NCBI RefSeq assembly: GCF_000013345.1
Contig: NC_007777.1
Location: forward strand, 124,001-188,000
From: Frankia casuarinae
GTDB lineage: Bacteria; Actinomycetota; Actinomycetes; Frankiales; Frankiaceae
Direction: 5' to 3'
Length of the DNA stretch: 64,000 bases
Shown here in pieces: positions 45,565-51,619 of the stretch. The notes beneath the pieces are model-generated. The model ran no database searches. It was given only the letters and a program-made list of their open reading frames with translations, and was not told the DNA's origin. The position numbers were made by a program, and so were the translations under genes. Within the stretch, counting starts at the first letter, position 1, and every line of letters begins with the position of its first letter.

Positions 45565-46032
45565 TTAGGGCTTCCTCTCGTGGGGCAATGGCGGCCTCGT
45601 GACGGGGACCGTGCGTAGGAGCCGTTCCAGGCCGGTGTAGTCGCCGGGGTTGGTGGTGAACAGTGGAAGGTCCTCCGCGACCGCCGTGGCGGCGATCATC
45701 AGGTCCGCGGTCCGGCGGCGCGGTTTGCGGCCCGCGGCGACGACGGCCGCGGTCAGCCGGCCGTAGACCCGCGCCGCCTCGGCGTCGAACGGGATCGGAT
45801 CGAACTCGTTCTCGGCACGTTGGAGGATCTCCATCCGCCGTGCCCGTTCCTCATGCTCGTCGTACAGGTCCTGCTCGTCGTTACGCCGCACCTGGTGTGG
45901 CCCGGCGGACAGCTCCGCCAGCGTCACCACGCTGATCGCCATCTCGTCCGGAAGCTCGGCCACGTTCACCCAGCGGCGCAGGATCAGGATGTTGGTATCC
46001 AGCAGGCCCTGCCGGACGGGCTCACTGGTCAT
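45565..46032 (-). CDS. vapC: PIN-domain toxin (VapC family)
   Basis: 155 residues from the ATG at 46030-46032, inside the antitoxin 3' end (11-bp overlap). Acidic active-site residues: QGLLDTNILILRRWVNVAEL (first Asp), ISVVTLAELSAGPHQVRRND (Glu), RRTADLMIAATAVAEDLPLF (Asp) and TTNPGDYTGL (last Asp). VapC toxins are Mg-dependent RNases acting on tRNA or rRNA. Length and motifs are complete. The longer open frame upstream lies over the antitoxin and is rejected. Confidence 0.92.
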   Translation of the reverse strand: MTSEPVRQGLLDTNILILRRWVNVAELPDEMAISVVTLAELSAGPHQVRRNDEQDLYDEHEERARRMEILQRAENEFDPIPFDAEAARVYGRLTAAVVAAGRKPRRRTADLMIAATAVAEDLPLFTTNPGDYTGLERLLRTVPVTRPPLPHERKP

Positions 46033-46291
46033 AGGCATCCGTCGCCTCGTGGTCGGCCGCGGCCTCCTGGTCGGCGCGGAACGCCTCCAGGCCGGTGTCA
46101 GGTGCGTTGCGTGACATCGCGGCGAACTCCTGCCGCGAGACGAACCGGCGCCGGCGCCGGATCGGGACGAGCTGCCCGATCTGGTGACCATCCCGAGTGA
46201 CCGTGAACGACTGCCCATGCTCGACGGCGTCCATGATCTCCCGCGACCTCGACCGCAGGTCCCGCTGCGTGATCTCAGGAGTGCTCACCAT
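46022..46291 (-). CDS. Phd/YefM-type antitoxin
   Basis: 89 residues from the ATG at 46289-46291: EITQRDLRSRSREIMDAVEH, GQSFTVTRDGHQIGQLVPIR is the Phd/YefM DNA-binding fold, and the C-terminal FVSRQEFAAMSRNAPDTGLE the toxin-wrapping helix. It is first in the operon with the PIN toxin and should autoregulate it. Confidence 0.9.
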   Translation of the reverse strand: MVSTPEITQRDLRSRSREIMDAVEHGQSFTVTRDGHQIGQLVPIRRRRRFVSRQEFAAMSRNAPDTGLEAFRADQEAAADHEATDAYDQ

Positions 46292-46652
46292 GCCAGCGTA
46301 GCACCCGGTGCTACAGCGTGCCGCGACGAAGATCCAGAGTCTGGCCAGGCGATGTTGACCGCCCGGCTTCGCCATACCGCCGTGTGCCTGCGGTCGCCTC
46401 CTGCACGAAAGACGCTATCCGCAGCGCTCAAGAATATTGCGGATCCGCCGGGCGCCTGGATGATCGTCGTCATACGCGGCTTCGACGATTCGACGATTCC
46501 CATTACCTGCCGCGTCAGGTCCTTCCTGCATTCGGCGGCCCCACGATCCGGCTATCCGGATGAGGCCGAGTAGTTTGCGCGTCAGCGATGCTGCTGTGAG
46601 CTACTCATCTACCTGATTCCGCCCAATTTGCCGGACGCCGTGAGGTGGTCCT
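46292..46652. other. Intergenic, 360 bp
   Basis: Promoter region of the toxin-antitoxin operon at the left end. Elsewhere only short open frames without support; no gene called. Confidence 0.4.
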
Positions 46653-46787
46653 GTGTCGCGTCCAACCAAACCCAACGAGCGCCAGCTCGCGGTTCTCCGC
46701 TGGATTGGCGACGGATGCCCGCCGCGAGATTGGCCCGACCAGAGCCACAAGCTCACCGCGCGGGTCTTGGAGGGACGCGGTCTGGTC
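46653..46787 (+). pseudogene. Small winged-helix-type protein cut by an IS110 end
   Basis: 45 codons of clear coding sequence, MSRPTKPNERQLAVLRWIGD then CPPRDWPDQSHKLTARVLEG and RGLVQ, a pattern common in small actinomycete proteins (QLAVLRWIxDGCP...HKLxAxxLxxRGLV). The next bases are the IS110 leader sequence at 46788, so the C-terminal half is lost. The frame stays open to 46898 by chance. Confidence 0.65.
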
Positions 46788-46897
46788 CAGGTCAGTGATC
46801 ATGCCGGCTTGCGCCGGCACCCTGTCCTGATGAGGATGTTGGTGCCGTCCGGTCCGACGTCGTCCCTCTGTGGTGCCTGCGAGCCCGTAGGTCAGTG
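46788..46897 (+). mobile_element. IS110 left-end fragment (110 bp)
   Basis: Matches 37532-37641 (complement) over 110 bases: CAGGTCAGTGATCATGCCGG at one end, GCCCGTAGGTCAGTG at the other. It is what remains of an IS110 insertion after the IS5-type element entered at 46897. It gives an independent estimate of the IS110 left end. Confidence 0.75.
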
Positions 46898-47787
46898 AGC
46901 CATTTCAAAGTTGGTTTTCCTAAAGGCCCTCGGTGGCGAGGACGAGGGCGGCCTGGGCGAAGGTGCCGACGCGGCGTGGGCAGCCACGGAAACGGTCGAA
47001 TATGTGCCAGTTCTTGAGGACCGCGAATCCTCGTTCGCCTTGTGAGCGGGTGGTGGCGTGGGTCCGGTTGGCCTCCTTGTCACGGTCGGGGAGGTCGTTG
47101 TTCTTGGGTTTCTTGATCGGGACGAGGAGGCGGTCGCCCTCGCCGCCGACGTAGCCCTTGTCCGCGTAGAGGTAGAGCTCCGAGCGGTCGATCAGATCGA
47201 GAATGTCGTGCATCCGGGCCGCGGTGAGGTCATGGACGGAGCCGGGAAGCCCTTCGGAGATCCAGATCAGCCGGCCGTAGGGGTCGGTGAGGCCCTGCAG
47301 GTTGATGCCGTGGTACTTGTGCTTGCCCGAGTAGTACAGCTTGTTGTGCGCGCGGACACGGTTGGTACGCACGACGGTGCCGTCGAGGATGAGGAAGTTG
47401 CTCTGGGTCCACGCGAAGATCCAGACCGCGGCGAGCAGGGTCCGGCCGTGAGTGGCGAGCAGGCGGACGGCTTCGCGGATGTAGTTGTGGACGGTGCCGA
47501 CACTGACCTGGAAGCCCTCGGCGAGCTGCTCGTAGCGTTCACCCTTGCGGAGGTGGACGAGCACCAGGAGTGCCTGCTCGGGTGGGGGCAGCTTGCGCCA
47601 GGTCCGACGCTGGGCGCGATCCTCGGCCAGCAGCCCCGCGAGGAAGGTCAGGGTCGACTCGGGCAGGTCGACGACACCAGGGTAGGTTAGCAACGGAAGT
47701 CCTCGGTCAAGGGCACAGTGGGGTAGACACCCTGTGATCTACCGGGGACTTCTCTATTTACGGCACCCCTCCGGCCACCGCCCGAAC
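46897..47787 (-). mobile_element. IS5/ISL2-type element, intact copy
   Basis: Second copy of the element at 24197, reversed. Ends set by comparison: GAGCCATTTCAAAGTTGG on the left, GGCCACCGCCCGAAC on the right. It carries a complete transposase. It is inserted at the IS110 fragment and directly abuts the IS66 element on its right. Confidence 0.85.
46920..47693 (-). CDS. IS5-type (DDE_Tnp_4) transposase, complete
   Basis: 257 residues. HTH: LRKGERYEQLAEGFQVSVGT then VHNYIREAVRLLATHGRTLL. DDE residues: FLILDGTVVRTNRVRAHNKL (Asp), ELYLYADKGYVGGEGDRLLV (Asp), RSQGERGFAVLKNWHIFDRF (Glu). The C-terminus CPRRVGTFAQAALVLATEGL is intact, unlike the copy split at 25000. Start is a TTG or the next codon; the first residues LTYPGVVDLPESTLTFLAGL are shared by both copies. 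Confidence 0.92.
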   Translation of the reverse strand: MLTYPGVVDLPESTLTFLAGLLAEDRAQRRTWRKLPPPEQALLVLVHLRKGERYEQLAEGFQVSVGTVHNYIREAVRLLATHGRTLLAAVWIFAWTQSNFLILDGTVVRTNRVRAHNKLYYSGKHKYHGINLQGLTDPYGRLIWISEGLPGSVHDLTAARMHDILDLIDRSELYLYADKGYVGGEGDRLLVPIKKPKNNDLPDRDKEANRTHATTRSQGERGFAVLKNWHIFDRFRGCPRRVGTFAQAALVLATEGL

Positions 47788-49692
47788 GTACGTAGTCGGA
47801 AGTCCCGTTGAGTTGATCGACGTTGGCGGTGGCTGCGGGGGCTGGGTGTGGCCTGATGGTCTCCGTGGGTGATGGTTCGCTGGTCGGGATGGTTTGCTGT
47901 GGTGCGTGGCGGTTGTCGAGTCGGGTGTTTGCGGCGTTGCTGGTGGTGAGGCGCTGGCGGATGTGTTGGTGGAGAACGGCCGTCTGCGAGTCGAGCTCGC
48001 GGAGCTGGGGACGGAGCATGCCCGGCTGCTCGCGCGGGAGACCGCGGCCGCGGCCGAGCTTGAGGCGTTGCGGGCGGAACTGGCGACGTTGCGTCGGATG
48101 CTGTTCGGCCGGTCGTCGGAGCGCGCGTCGGGCGGGCCGCCGGCCTGCGCCGGCGCAGGGGACAGCGGTGATGGTCGGGACGGGGCGGCTGGTGAGGGGG
48201 CTGGTGGGTCGACGGGCCGGCCGCGGGGGCCGGGGGCGCGTTCGGGCCGGCGCAGCTACGACCACCTGGCGCGTGACGAGGTCGACGGCGACTTCGAGGG
48301 CGGGGGTTACACGTGCCCGTCGTGCGGGGCGTCGTTCACGCCGTGGGGTGAGCACGTCGTCGAGCAGCTCGACTGGGTGGTGTCGGTGCGGCTGCGGGTC
48401 ACGCGGCGTCGCCGCTACCGGCGAGGCTGCCGGTGCGGGGGGCCGGTGACGGTGACCGCGCCGGGCCCGTCGAAGGCGATCGGGAAGGGTCTGTTCACGC
48501 ACCGGTTCCTCGCCCTGCTGGTCGTGGAGCGCTATGTCGCGGGCCGTTCCCAGAACTCACTGGTCACCGGCCTGTCCCGGCAGGGGGCGGAGATCTCGCC
48601 GGCGACGCTGACCGGGGCGTGCGCCCAGGTCGGCGACCTACTCGCCCCGCTCGCGGAGAAGATCGCCGGGCGGTCGCGGGGGGCGTGGCACCTGCACGCC
48701 GACGAGACGACCTGGCGGGTGTTCACCCCGACCGGCGGGGACGGCTCGGCGCGCTGGTGGCTGTGGGTGTTCCTGGGGCCGGACTCGGTGTGTTTCGTGA
48801 TGGACCCGACCCGCTCGGCCGCGGTGCTCGCCGACCATGTCGGGATCGATGCCGAGACCGGGCAGCTGACGGGCGACGACGGCGCCGGCGGCCCGCGCCG
48901 GCTGGTGATCTCCTCGGACTTCTACGCCGTCTACGCGTCCGCGGGGGCGAAGGCGGACGGGATCGTCAACCTGTTCTGCTGGGTCCACGTCCGGCGGTAC
49001 TTCCTGCGCGCGGGCGACGCGAACCCCGCGCAGCTGGGGATCTGGGCCCGGCAGTGGCGCGAGCGGATCGCCGCGCTCTACGCGGCGCACGCCGAACTCG
49101 CCGCCGCCTGGCAGGCGGCGATCACGGCCCCGAGCCCGCCGGCCGAGCGGCGTCTCGCGACCGCCTACACCGGTTGGGACCGCGCGATCGACGCGATCGA
49201 CACCGCCCGCCGCGAGCACATGGCGTCCCCCGGCCTGCCCGAACCCGCGCGCAGGGCGCTGGCCACGATGGACCGGGAGTGGACCGGGCTGGTCGCCCAC
49301 CGCAACCATCCCATGATCGGTCTGGACAACAACCCGGCCGAGAGGATCATCCGCAAACCGGTGATCACACGGCGGAACACCGGCGGCTCCCGCACCGACG
49401 ACGCCGCCCGCCGCGCCGCCACGATCTTCACCGTCACCGCGACCGCCGACCTGCACGGCCTCAACCCACTGACCTACCTGGCCGACTACCTCGACGCCTG
49501 CGGTCGCGCCGGCGCCAGAGCACCCACCGGGACGGACCTCGACCGGTTCCTGCCCTGGGCTGCCAACCCCGACGACCTCGCCCGCTGGAGGAAGCCTCCC
49601 GGCTGACCCAGCCACGCCAGCCCGACTCCAGCGGTGTCACACCCGGTGACACCGCCCGTCAGCATTCCCCCACGCGACTTCCGACTACTTAC
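47788..49692 (+). mobile_element. IS66-type element, complete
   Basis: About 1.9 kb. Left end GTACGTAGTCGGAAGTCC and right end, read inward, GTAAGTAGTCGGAAGTCGCG are imperfect inverted repeats. It contains a single transposase gene; the small accessory genes of classical IS66 are absent. It lies against the IS5-type copy with no intervening base that I can assign. No clear target duplication. Confidence 0.8.
47894..49606 (+). CDS. IS66-family transposase
   Basis: Up to 570 residues; a later GTG start is possible. N-terminal leucine-rich coiled coil (LVENGRLRVELAELGTEHAR, ALRAELATLRRMLFGRSSER), then zinc-finger region YTCPSCGASFTPWGEHVVEQ and GCRCGGPVTVTAPG, then the DDE core WHLHADETTWRVFTPTG (Asp), RLVISSDFYAVYASAGAKAD (Asp) and MIGLDNNPAERIIRKPVITR (Glu in the NNPAER motif). 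Complete and uninterrupted. Confidence 0.93.
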   Translation: MLWCVAVVESGVCGVAGGEALADVLVENGRLRVELAELGTEHARLLARETAAAAELEALRAELATLRRMLFGRSSERASGGPPACAGAGDSGDGRDGAAGEGAGGSTGRPRGPGARSGRRSYDHLARDEVDGDFEGGGYTCPSCGASFTPWGEHVVEQLDWVVSVRLRVTRRRRYRRGCRCGGPVTVTAPGPSKAIGKGLFTHRFLALLVVERYVAGRSQNSLVTGLSRQGAEISPATLTGACAQVGDLLAPLAEKIAGRSRGAWHLHADETTWRVFTPTGGDGSARWWLWVFLGPDSVCFVMDPTRSAAVLADHVGIDAETGQLTGDDGAGGPRRLVISSDFYAVYASAGAKADGIVNLFCWVHVRRYFLRAGDANPAQLGIWARQWRERIAALYAAHAELAAAWQAAITAPSPPAERRLATAYTGWDRAIDAIDTARREHMASPGLPEPARRALATMDREWTGLVAHRNHPMIGLDNNPAERIIRKPVITRRNTGGSRTDDAARRAATIFTVTATADLHGLNPLTYLADYLDACGRAGARAPTGTDLDRFLPWAANPDDLARWRKPPG

Positions 49693-49981
49693 ATCGAATC
49701 GACGGTTTCGAATAGGTCGCCACTGCCGTCGCCGCGCAGCGGCATAGGCTTTCTACGTCACCACGTAGGACGCGTGAGCCATCACGCCCGGGCACTTACC
49801 AGACGTAGTTGATCGTAACCGACAGCTACCTCCGCGCAGCCCTGCGTCCGCACCAGAGACAGCCGACGTCGACCGGGCAACGCCCCACCATCATCCCAGA
49901 CACAACCCCGAACGCGACAAACAGGCCACCGCAGCCCCACAGAATTCTCATCCGATCAGGTGGCGGCCACGCCGCCAGGAA
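49693..49981. other. Intergenic
   Basis: No gene seen; AT-richer patches (ATAGGCTTTCTACGTCACCA near 49745) and otherwise featureless. Upstream flank of the tandem repeat. Confidence 0.35.
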
Positions 49982-50081
49982 TGCTCAAAAAGACGCACCC
50001 TCTACGTGCTCAAAAAGACGCACCCTCTACGTGCTCAAAAAGACGCACCCTCTACGTGCTCAAAAAGACGCACCCTCTACG
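49982..50081 (+). repeat. Four perfect tandem copies of a 25-bp unit
   Basis: The unit TGCTCAAAAAGACGCACCCT + CTACG starts at 49982, 50007, 50032 and 50057 without a mismatch, followed by a partial TGCT. Because 25 is not a multiple of three, each copy is read in a different frame (KKTHPLRA, KDAPSTC, KRRTLYV); all three frames are open. It stands directly before the truncated SARP-type remnant. Confidence 0.95.
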
Positions 50082-50713
50082 TGCTGCATATCCGGCGGAG
50101 TCTCCGGCTGCCGTCGGTCCAGGATTCTCGCGAGGTTCTCGTCACCCGGAACCATGCATACCAGATCGTGGCGGACGGATACGACTTCGACCGGTGCCGA
50201 TTCGATGATCTATATCGGGCCGGGCGGACTGCCGCGGCTCGGCGCGATGCCGAGGCGGCGAGCCGGCTGTTGGGCCAGGCGCTGCGCGAGTGGCGCGGCC
50301 CTGCCCTCGCGGATGTCAAACGTGGCAGCCTCAGCGCACCGCACGTCATGGCGCTGGAGGAGGCCAGGCTGCACGCGACCGAGCTCAGGATCGAGGCCGA
50401 CCTGGCGCTCGGGCGGCACCACGAGCTCGTGCCCGAACTGGAAGACCTGATCAGCCTGCATCCGATGCACGACCTGCACGCCCAGCTCATGGTGGCCCAC
50501 TCCCGGTCCGGCCATCCGAAGCGAGCCGCCTCGGTCTTCCGTCGCCTCCGCTCCACGCTCATCGACACGATGGGCATCGAGCCGACGTTCCGGACGTCCA
50601 ACCTCATGCGTGCCATCCTCGCCGGCAGCGACCTGCTGCTGGGCGACCGGTGGGAGTCGTCGCCGCAGGCGTTTCGGCAGGGAACGGGCCGCCAGCTGAC
50701 CCGCGCCCGCTGA
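50082..50713 (+). pseudogene. SARP/AfsR-type regulator, N-terminally truncated (BTAD domain)
   Basis: About 210 residues. LVTRNHAYQIVADGYDFDRC is the end of the OmpR-type DNA-binding domain, and FDDLYRAGRTAAARRDAEAA, LREWRGPALADVKRGS, ALEEARLHATELRIEADLAL and DLHAQLMVAHSRSGHPKRAA form the bacterial transcriptional activation domain. The first two thirds of the winged helix are missing: coding begins abruptly at the tandem repeat. It has no own start with a ribosome site and is probably non-functional. Confidence 0.7.
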
Positions 50714-50884
50714 TCCTGGGCGCTCCGTCGCGGCCTGCGGCCTGGGCCGTCGAGTGCCAGGCCTGTCCTCCACGGGCAGGCCGGCACCCGGCGGCCGCAG
50801 CGACTCCCGCCGGACCGAACCCCGTCACGCCTGGTGGGTCATGCCGGTCGGGTGCGGCGCGCTGCTACCCGGGCGCGGTGTTTG
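50714..50884. other. Intergenic
   Basis: Between convergent genes. Nothing recognised. Confidence 0.35.
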
Positions 50885-51619
50885 CTACCAGGCTACGATG
50901 CCGTTCTGGTCGAAGAACGTGCCCGAGGGGGCGTCGTCGGGCAGGGTCGCGGCCCGGACGACGACCTGCGCGGCTTGGTCGGCGGTGAGTTGAGCCTGCT
51001 CTCTGTTGATCGGGGTCAGGTCGGTCTGCACGAAGCCCGGGCAGACTGAGCTGATCTTGATGGGGGTGTCGGCGAGCTTCTTGGCGAGCGAGATCGTGAT
51101 GCTGTTCAGCGCCGCCTTCGAGCTCTGGTACGCCGGCACGATCAGGCCGTAGTAGGGCGATGCGGGGTTCGCCTGGTCGCTGAGCGAGCCCATCGTGGTG
51201 GAGACGTTGACGATGCGGCCGGCCGGGCTCCTGCGCAGCAGCGGAAGGAGCGCCTCGGTGACGGCAACCGGGCCGAAGACGTTGGTCGCGTACGTCTTCC
51301 CGAACAGATCGAGGGAGGCGAACTCGTGCTGCTCGCCGTCCGTGGCCTCGGGCAGGATCCCCGCGTTGTTGACCAGAATGTCCAGGCCGGCCGGCAGCTC
51401 CGCGACCCGCCTGGTGGCTGCCGCGATGCTGTCGGGGGAGGTGACGTCGAGCGCGATGGCGTCGGCGTCGAATCCCTGCGCCGTCAGATCGGCCGCGGCC
51501 TTGTCCGCCGCGGCCTGCTCCCGCGCGGTCACGAGGACCCGGTGCCCGAGCCGCGCCAACGCCTGCGCGGTTGCGAAGCCCAATCCACGGTTGCTCCCGG
51601 TGACAAGTGCTGCAGACAT
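50885..51619 (-). CDS. Short-chain dehydrogenase/reductase
   Basis: 244 residues. Rossmann start SAALVTGSNRGLGFATAQAL (GxxxGxG), then LDVTSPDSIAAATRRVAELP, LDILVNNAGILPEATDG (NNAG), GRIVNVSTTMGSLSDQANPA (catalytic Ser) and VPAYQSSKAALNSITISLAK (YxxxK). PICPGFVQTD-type tail present as SVCPGFVQTDLTP. An NAD(P)H-dependent oxidoreductase of the classical SDR family; substrate unknown. Stand-alone gene, with the alkyltransferase gene 142 bp upstream on the same strand. Confidence 0.93.
   Translation of the reverse strand: MSAALVTGSNRGLGFATAQALARLGHRVLVTAREQAAADKAAADLTAQGFDADAIALDVTSPDSIAAATRRVAELPAGLDILVNNAGILPEATDGEQHEFASLDLFGKTYATNVFGPVAVTEALLPLLRRSPAGRIVNVSTTMGSLSDQANPASPYYGLIVPAYQSSKAALNSITISLAKKLADTPIKISSVCPGFVQTDLTPINREQAQLTADQAAQVVVRAATLPDDAPSGTFFDQNGIVAW

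What the first reader, a model, noticed from the sequence alone, without database searches (positions are those of the whole stretch)
49982..50713. Four 25-bp tandem repeats fused to a headless SARP regulator
A perfect 4 x 25-bp array stands exactly where the DNA-binding half of the regulator should be. All three frames through the array are open because the unit rotates frame, so a chimeric protein of 235 codons is possible. Perfect identity means the array is very young or under length-change selection, a possible contingency locus.
Basis: seen in the sequence. Interest (0 to 1): 0.5.

Follow-up and report, generated by a model that had tools for sequence, protein, structure and literature searches.

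The report
Young minisatellite at broken regulator gene
A mobile DNA element appears to have cut a regulatory gene in half, and a 25-letter stretch spanning the join was then copied four times in a row, most likely by replication slippage; this is an ordinary genetic scar in a genome that holds many such short arrays.

Summary
In detail: TGCTCAAAAAGACGCACCCTCTACG is repeated four times without a mismatch at 49982-50085 (with a 4-bp TGCT stub) and runs in frame into a SARP/BTAD regulator that has lost its DNA-binding half. The array sits on a junction. The DNA to its left (49845-49988/9) is the left non-coding end of an IS110-family element; two other loci show that its tip reads ...GGAATGCTCAA, so each unit begins with IS110 tip. 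The end of each unit (TACG) plus the following TGCTGCAT is regulator coding sequence (YVLHIRR). TGCT lies on both sides of the junction, 25 bp apart, and the array is exactly four such periods plus TGCT. Best explanation: IS110 (later IS66) events decapitated the gene, and slippage between the TGCT pair made a minisatellite. The contingency-locus idea is not supported: no in-frame start upstream of the array, no convincing ribosome-binding site, and the winged-helix half is not in the window. Perfect arrays of 3 or more copies are common in this genome (23 in a 400-kb sample). Copy number in other isolates could not be tested. Interest is low.

The parts
49982..50085 (+). Perfect 25-bp array, four units plus TGCT; each unit starts with IS110 tip (TGCTCAA) and ends with regulator coding DNA (TACG); the middle AAAGACGCACCCTC is of open origin
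49845..49989 (-). Left non-coding end of an IS110-family element, tip at its right edge; its transposase gene is missing here
   Evidence: 90% identical over 145 bp to DNA upstream of an IS110-type gene in G006 (L010), 91% to L015 over 107 bp, 40 bp exact in L018; families of the related elements' proteins
50079..50713 (+). Rest of a SARP-type regulator: end of the winged helix (YVLHIRR) and complete BTAD domain, no N-terminal part
49693..49846 (.). Remnant of another repeated sequence, unidentified, with copies in G005
   Evidence: 81% to G005 contig 71 and 85-87% to six contig ends of G005; no gene assigned
47787..49692 (+). IS66-family element with transposase gene 47894-49606; no matching 8-bp flank duplication
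   Evidence: Pfam DDE_Tnp_IS66; 100% identical, internally deleted copy in L082; flanks

Best explanation
This is a decayed gene with a slippage-born minisatellite on its break point. An IS110-family element inserted into, or mediated a deletion up to, helix 3 of the winged helix of a SARP-type regulator, leaving its left tip ...GGAATGCTCAA next to the remaining coding DNA. The join happened to carry TGCT in the IS tip and TGCT in the gene (GTG CTG CAT), 25 bp apart. Replication slippage or unequal recombination between these 4-bp copies duplicated the 25-bp segment, and further slippage between perfect units raised it to four. Other events (an IS66 element and another remnant) removed the rest of the IS110 and separated or lost the gene's 5' half. 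Shown: the array, the chimeric make-up of the unit at both its ends, and the flanking TGCT. Inferred: the order of events, the slippage step, and the lack of function.
For: The IS110 end continues without a break into the first unit: alignments to L010 run to 49989 and to L018 to 49988, and in both loci GGAATGCTCAA is followed by different DNA. A related IS110 element in three near-identical copies ends at the equivalent point. The other end of the unit runs into YVLHIRR, which aligns with YVLHIRK and YILHLRR of homologues. The array is 4 x 25 + 4 bp, the 4 bp being the TGCT found on both sides; a stub of 4 or more has a chance of about 3%. IS110 and IS66 have been caught moving in CcI3, where a single-base deletion in a run of seven Gs was put down to replication slippage (PMC11946415, passages), and a 9-bp tandem-repeat deletion was seen in a laboratory stock of CcI3 (PMC5745019, passage). 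Short perfect arrays are common in the genus.
Against: The middle of the unit (AAAGACGCACCCTC) has no known source: homologues align only from YV on unless a two-residue gap is allowed, and a 19-mer covering it hits only the array. The pre-insertion gene was not found, and the lost half was not found in the window. The flank after the tip here differs from the CAGAYTTGAG-like context shared by L010 and L018, so it may be a deletion join and not a simple insertion. A TGCT stub alone is weak statistical evidence.
Confidence: 0.8

Rival explanations
1. Contingency locus: copy-number changes by slippage shift the frame and switch a BTAD protein, or a fusion to it, on and off.
For: 25 is not a multiple of 3 and all frames of the array are open. 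By arithmetic coordinates, 3 or 6 copies would put GTG 49960, and 2 or 5 copies TTG 49809, in frame with the BTAD part.
Against: No in-frame start before the array and no Shine-Dalgarno-like leader; no DNA-binding domain; the upstream starts lie in IS remnants; arrays of this kind are widespread in the genus, 6 of 23 in the own sample with periods not divisible by 3.
Confidence: 0.05
2. The array is older than the IS110 end: it was part of the regulator gene, and the element inserted into it.
For: The units run in frame with the regulator and contain part of its coding sequence. A read-through of the last units resembles a homologue weakly (tblastn E 0.028).
Against: It needs the first seven bases of the unit to equal the IS110 tip by chance (about 4^-7, inference); the tip with these bases is present in two other loci that have no array.
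Confidence: 0.08
3. Assembly artefact: the copy number is wrong, or the array does not exist.
For: Deletions in repeats may be missed by short reads, as the CcI3 resequencing paper notes (PMC5745019, passage).
Against: The array is 104 bp, within the span of a single classical read (recalled), in a single-contig genome that shows many other arrays.
Confidence: 0.04

Closest known systems
Bacterial minisatellite/VNTR formed by slippage between short flanking direct repeats (general model, recalled)
   Same: Perfect units, period defined by the spacing of a 4-bp direct repeat, partial last copy equal to that repeat
   Different: The unit is a chimera of an IS tip and a host gene; variation between isolates not tested
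SARP / BTAD regulators (Pfam PF03704 with an N-terminal winged helix)
   Same: Complete BTAD domain and end of the winged helix
   Different: The first part of the winged helix is gone; best homologues are only 44% (genus) and 48% (class sample) identical
IS110-family insertion sequences (PF01548 + PF02371 recombinase, long left non-coding end)
   Same: The left flank is homologous to the left end of such elements; IS110-group elements have a long left end that encodes the bridge RNA (PMC11208160, passages)
   Different: Only about 145 bp remain, with no recombinase gene

Membership tests
SARP transcriptional activator | BTAD domain | tested here: met
   PF03704 E 6.9e-37, profile positions 2-146 of 146
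SARP transcriptional activator | N-terminal winged-helix DNA-binding domain | tested here: not met
   Only helix 3 and the wing remain; no PF00486 hit in the ORF; no other half found in the window
IS110-family element (left flank) | Left non-coding end next to a recombinase gene in other copies | tested here: met
   L010 and related copies
IS110-family element (left flank) | Complete element with recombinase gene at this locus | tested here: not met
   Homology stops at 49845, followed by another remnant and IS66
Contingency locus | Copy number varies between isolates or cells | not testable with these tools
   One genome per species is held; no reads
Contingency locus | Array lies between a usable start and a functional reading frame, or in its promoter | tested here: inconclusive
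   No in-frame start upstream and no Shine-Dalgarno-like leader; transcription not testable

The most novel reading that the evidence does not exclude
Frankia genomes have an unusually active process that turns chance short repeats into perfect 12-25-bp arrays. This locus is one case caught at a junction whose parents are known, and copy-number changes there decide which upstream start reads into a stand-alone BTAD protein.
Probability: 0.05. Interest if true: 0.5.

Novelty: new member of a known kind. Interest (0 to 1): 0.15.

Why it matters
As a locus it matters little: it is a gene broken by mobile elements. It is a clean example of how a minisatellite can start, because the ends of the unit can be assigned to a mobile-element tip and a host gene, and the founding 4-bp repeat is visible. 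The sampling control also suggests that Frankia makes short perfect arrays much more often than the few other actinobacteria sampled, which would be worth a proper survey.

Tried and rejected
Array as a mobile or dispersed repeat family: rejected. The unit is at one locus only, absent from the other 145 of 146 genomes, and exact scans of genome contigs and viral contigs gave 0 (records very near the own genome may be left out there).

Recovering the lost half of the regulator: a PF00486 scan of the own genome gave 20 matches, none an obvious severed half beside an IS110 end judging from the table alone (their neighbourhoods were not inspected one by one). tblastn with N-terminal pieces of the homologues against the window gave nothing credible, the best unrelated hit being E 0.006.

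Finding an orthologue to read the original sequence: best 44% in the genus, 48% among 393 class genomes, none confirmed in genome contigs.

Origin of the middle of the unit: a 19-mer covering it with up to 3 mismatches hit only the array, and the backward control pattern hit 3 places, so weak matches would mean nothing. Rfam found no family in 46500-51000.

Literature: none of the papers listed by searches looked to be about this array (titles and abstract starts, plus the passages cited). [quoted passage not shown] supplements were not available.

Full report
What is there. The window lies in a 5,433,628-bp single-contig genome. That size, and the 7,497,934 bp of relative G006, match my recollection of Frankia casuarinae CcI3 and Frankia alni ACN14a, so I take the host to be CcI3 (names recalled, not given by a tool). 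At 49982-50085 the unit TGCTCAAAAAGACGCACCCTCTACG is repeated four times exactly, followed by TGCT. Allowing 3 mismatches, the unit occurs only here in the genome and in none of the other 145 genomes searched.

The right side. From about 50079 to 50713 runs the rest of a SARP-type regulator, with a complete BTAD domain (E 6.9e-37) and coding-like third positions (GC3 0.86 from 50084 on). Aligned with homologues of 35-48% identity, its first residues YVLHIRRSL match YVLHIRK or YILHLRR in the third helix of the winged helix. The codons TAC GTG CTG of this motif cover the end of the last unit and the TGCT stub. Residues before YV do not align without a two-residue gap, so the source of the middle of the unit (AAAGACGCACCCTC) is open: native but diverged gene sequence, or filler.

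The left side. It is a pile of mobile-element pieces. 47787-49692 is an IS66 element; an internally deleted but otherwise 100%-identical copy lies in L082. Its flanks do not show the 8-bp duplication reported for newly moved IS66 in CcI3 (PMC11946415, passages), so the region has been rearranged. 49693-49846 matches repeated DNA of G005 that I could not name. 49845-49989 is 90% identical to the DNA upstream of an IS110-type transposase gene in G006 and matches two further places in the own genome over 107 and 40 bp. A related IS110 element in the own genome, with both transposase domains, exists in three near-identical copies whose left end stops at the equivalent point. In the two other loci with this tip, L010 and L018, GGAATGCTCAA is followed by different DNA. 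Hence the first seven bases of the repeat unit, TGCTCAA, most likely belong to the IS110 tip.

Mechanism. The single-copy ancestor can be read as ...GGAATGCTCAA-[AAAGACGCACCCTC]-TACGTGCTGCAT..., with TGCT on both sides 25 bp apart. Slippage between them gives a 25-bp duplication with a TGCT stub, which is what is seen; further steps between perfect units give four. A stub of 4 or more would arise by chance in about 3% of cases, so this point supports the model without proving it. The order of events is inference.

Is it unusual? In 400 kb sampled evenly from the own genome there are 23 perfect arrays with period 12 or more and at least 3 copies, 9 of them with at least 4. G006 has 19 and G003 24 in the same amount. 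400 kb from four other actinobacterial genomes (three of one genus) have 1; Markov-shuffled versions have 0. The sampled own-genome periods with 3 or more copies are all 12-18, so the 25-bp unit is the longest of its kind in sample and window. A perfect array as such is ordinary for this genus.

Contingency? Against: no in-frame start before the array, only GTGs inside it with an A/C-rich leader; no DNA-binding domain; IS debris all round. For: copy-number changes would alter which upstream start is in frame. I put it at 5%. A SARP without its winged helix cannot bind DNA in the known way (established for the family, recalled). Copy number in isolates, reads and expression could not be tested here. 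CcI3 does move IS110 and IS66 and does change repeat length in the laboratory (PMC11946415 and PMC5745019, passages), so the proposed steps are plausible for this organism.

Verdict. A real array, an understandable origin, no evidence for a function: a new member of a known kind, interest 0.15.

Noticed in passing
L105-L124 (own genome), L129-L148 (G006), L149-L168 (G003) against L169-L188 (G118, G194, G384, G355): Perfect tandem arrays of period 12 or more and at least 3 copies: 23, 19 and 24 per 400 kb in three genomes of the genus, 1 in 400 kb of other actinobacteria; periods peak at 15 and 18, the units share no obvious motif, and about a quarter have periods not divisible by 3.
   Followed up: partly
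L079:3966-7326 (G000:C1:4083966-4087326): Two near-identical IS110-family copies stand head to tail with a 1679-bp period, sharing an AG core at the junction; a third copy is in L080.
   Followed up: partly
L081:1214-3748: An IS110-like copy is split by about 1.7 kb that holds a reverse-transcriptase gene (RVT_1), possibly a group II intron or similar retroelement inside the insertion sequence.
   Followed up: no
L082:2948-3696: A 748-bp internally deleted derivative of the window's IS66 element, 100% identical in what remains, with both terminal repeats.
   Followed up: no
45565-46375: PIN-domain toxin-like gene overlapping a Phd/YefM-like antitoxin gene beside the IS cluster; the antitoxin hit is below Pfam's cut-off.
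   Followed up: no
L018:1501-1540 (G000:C1:3922004-3922043): A lone 40-bp exact copy of the IS110 left tip lies between two convergent genes without the rest of the element; it includes a GC-rich hairpin-like stretch.
   Followed up: no
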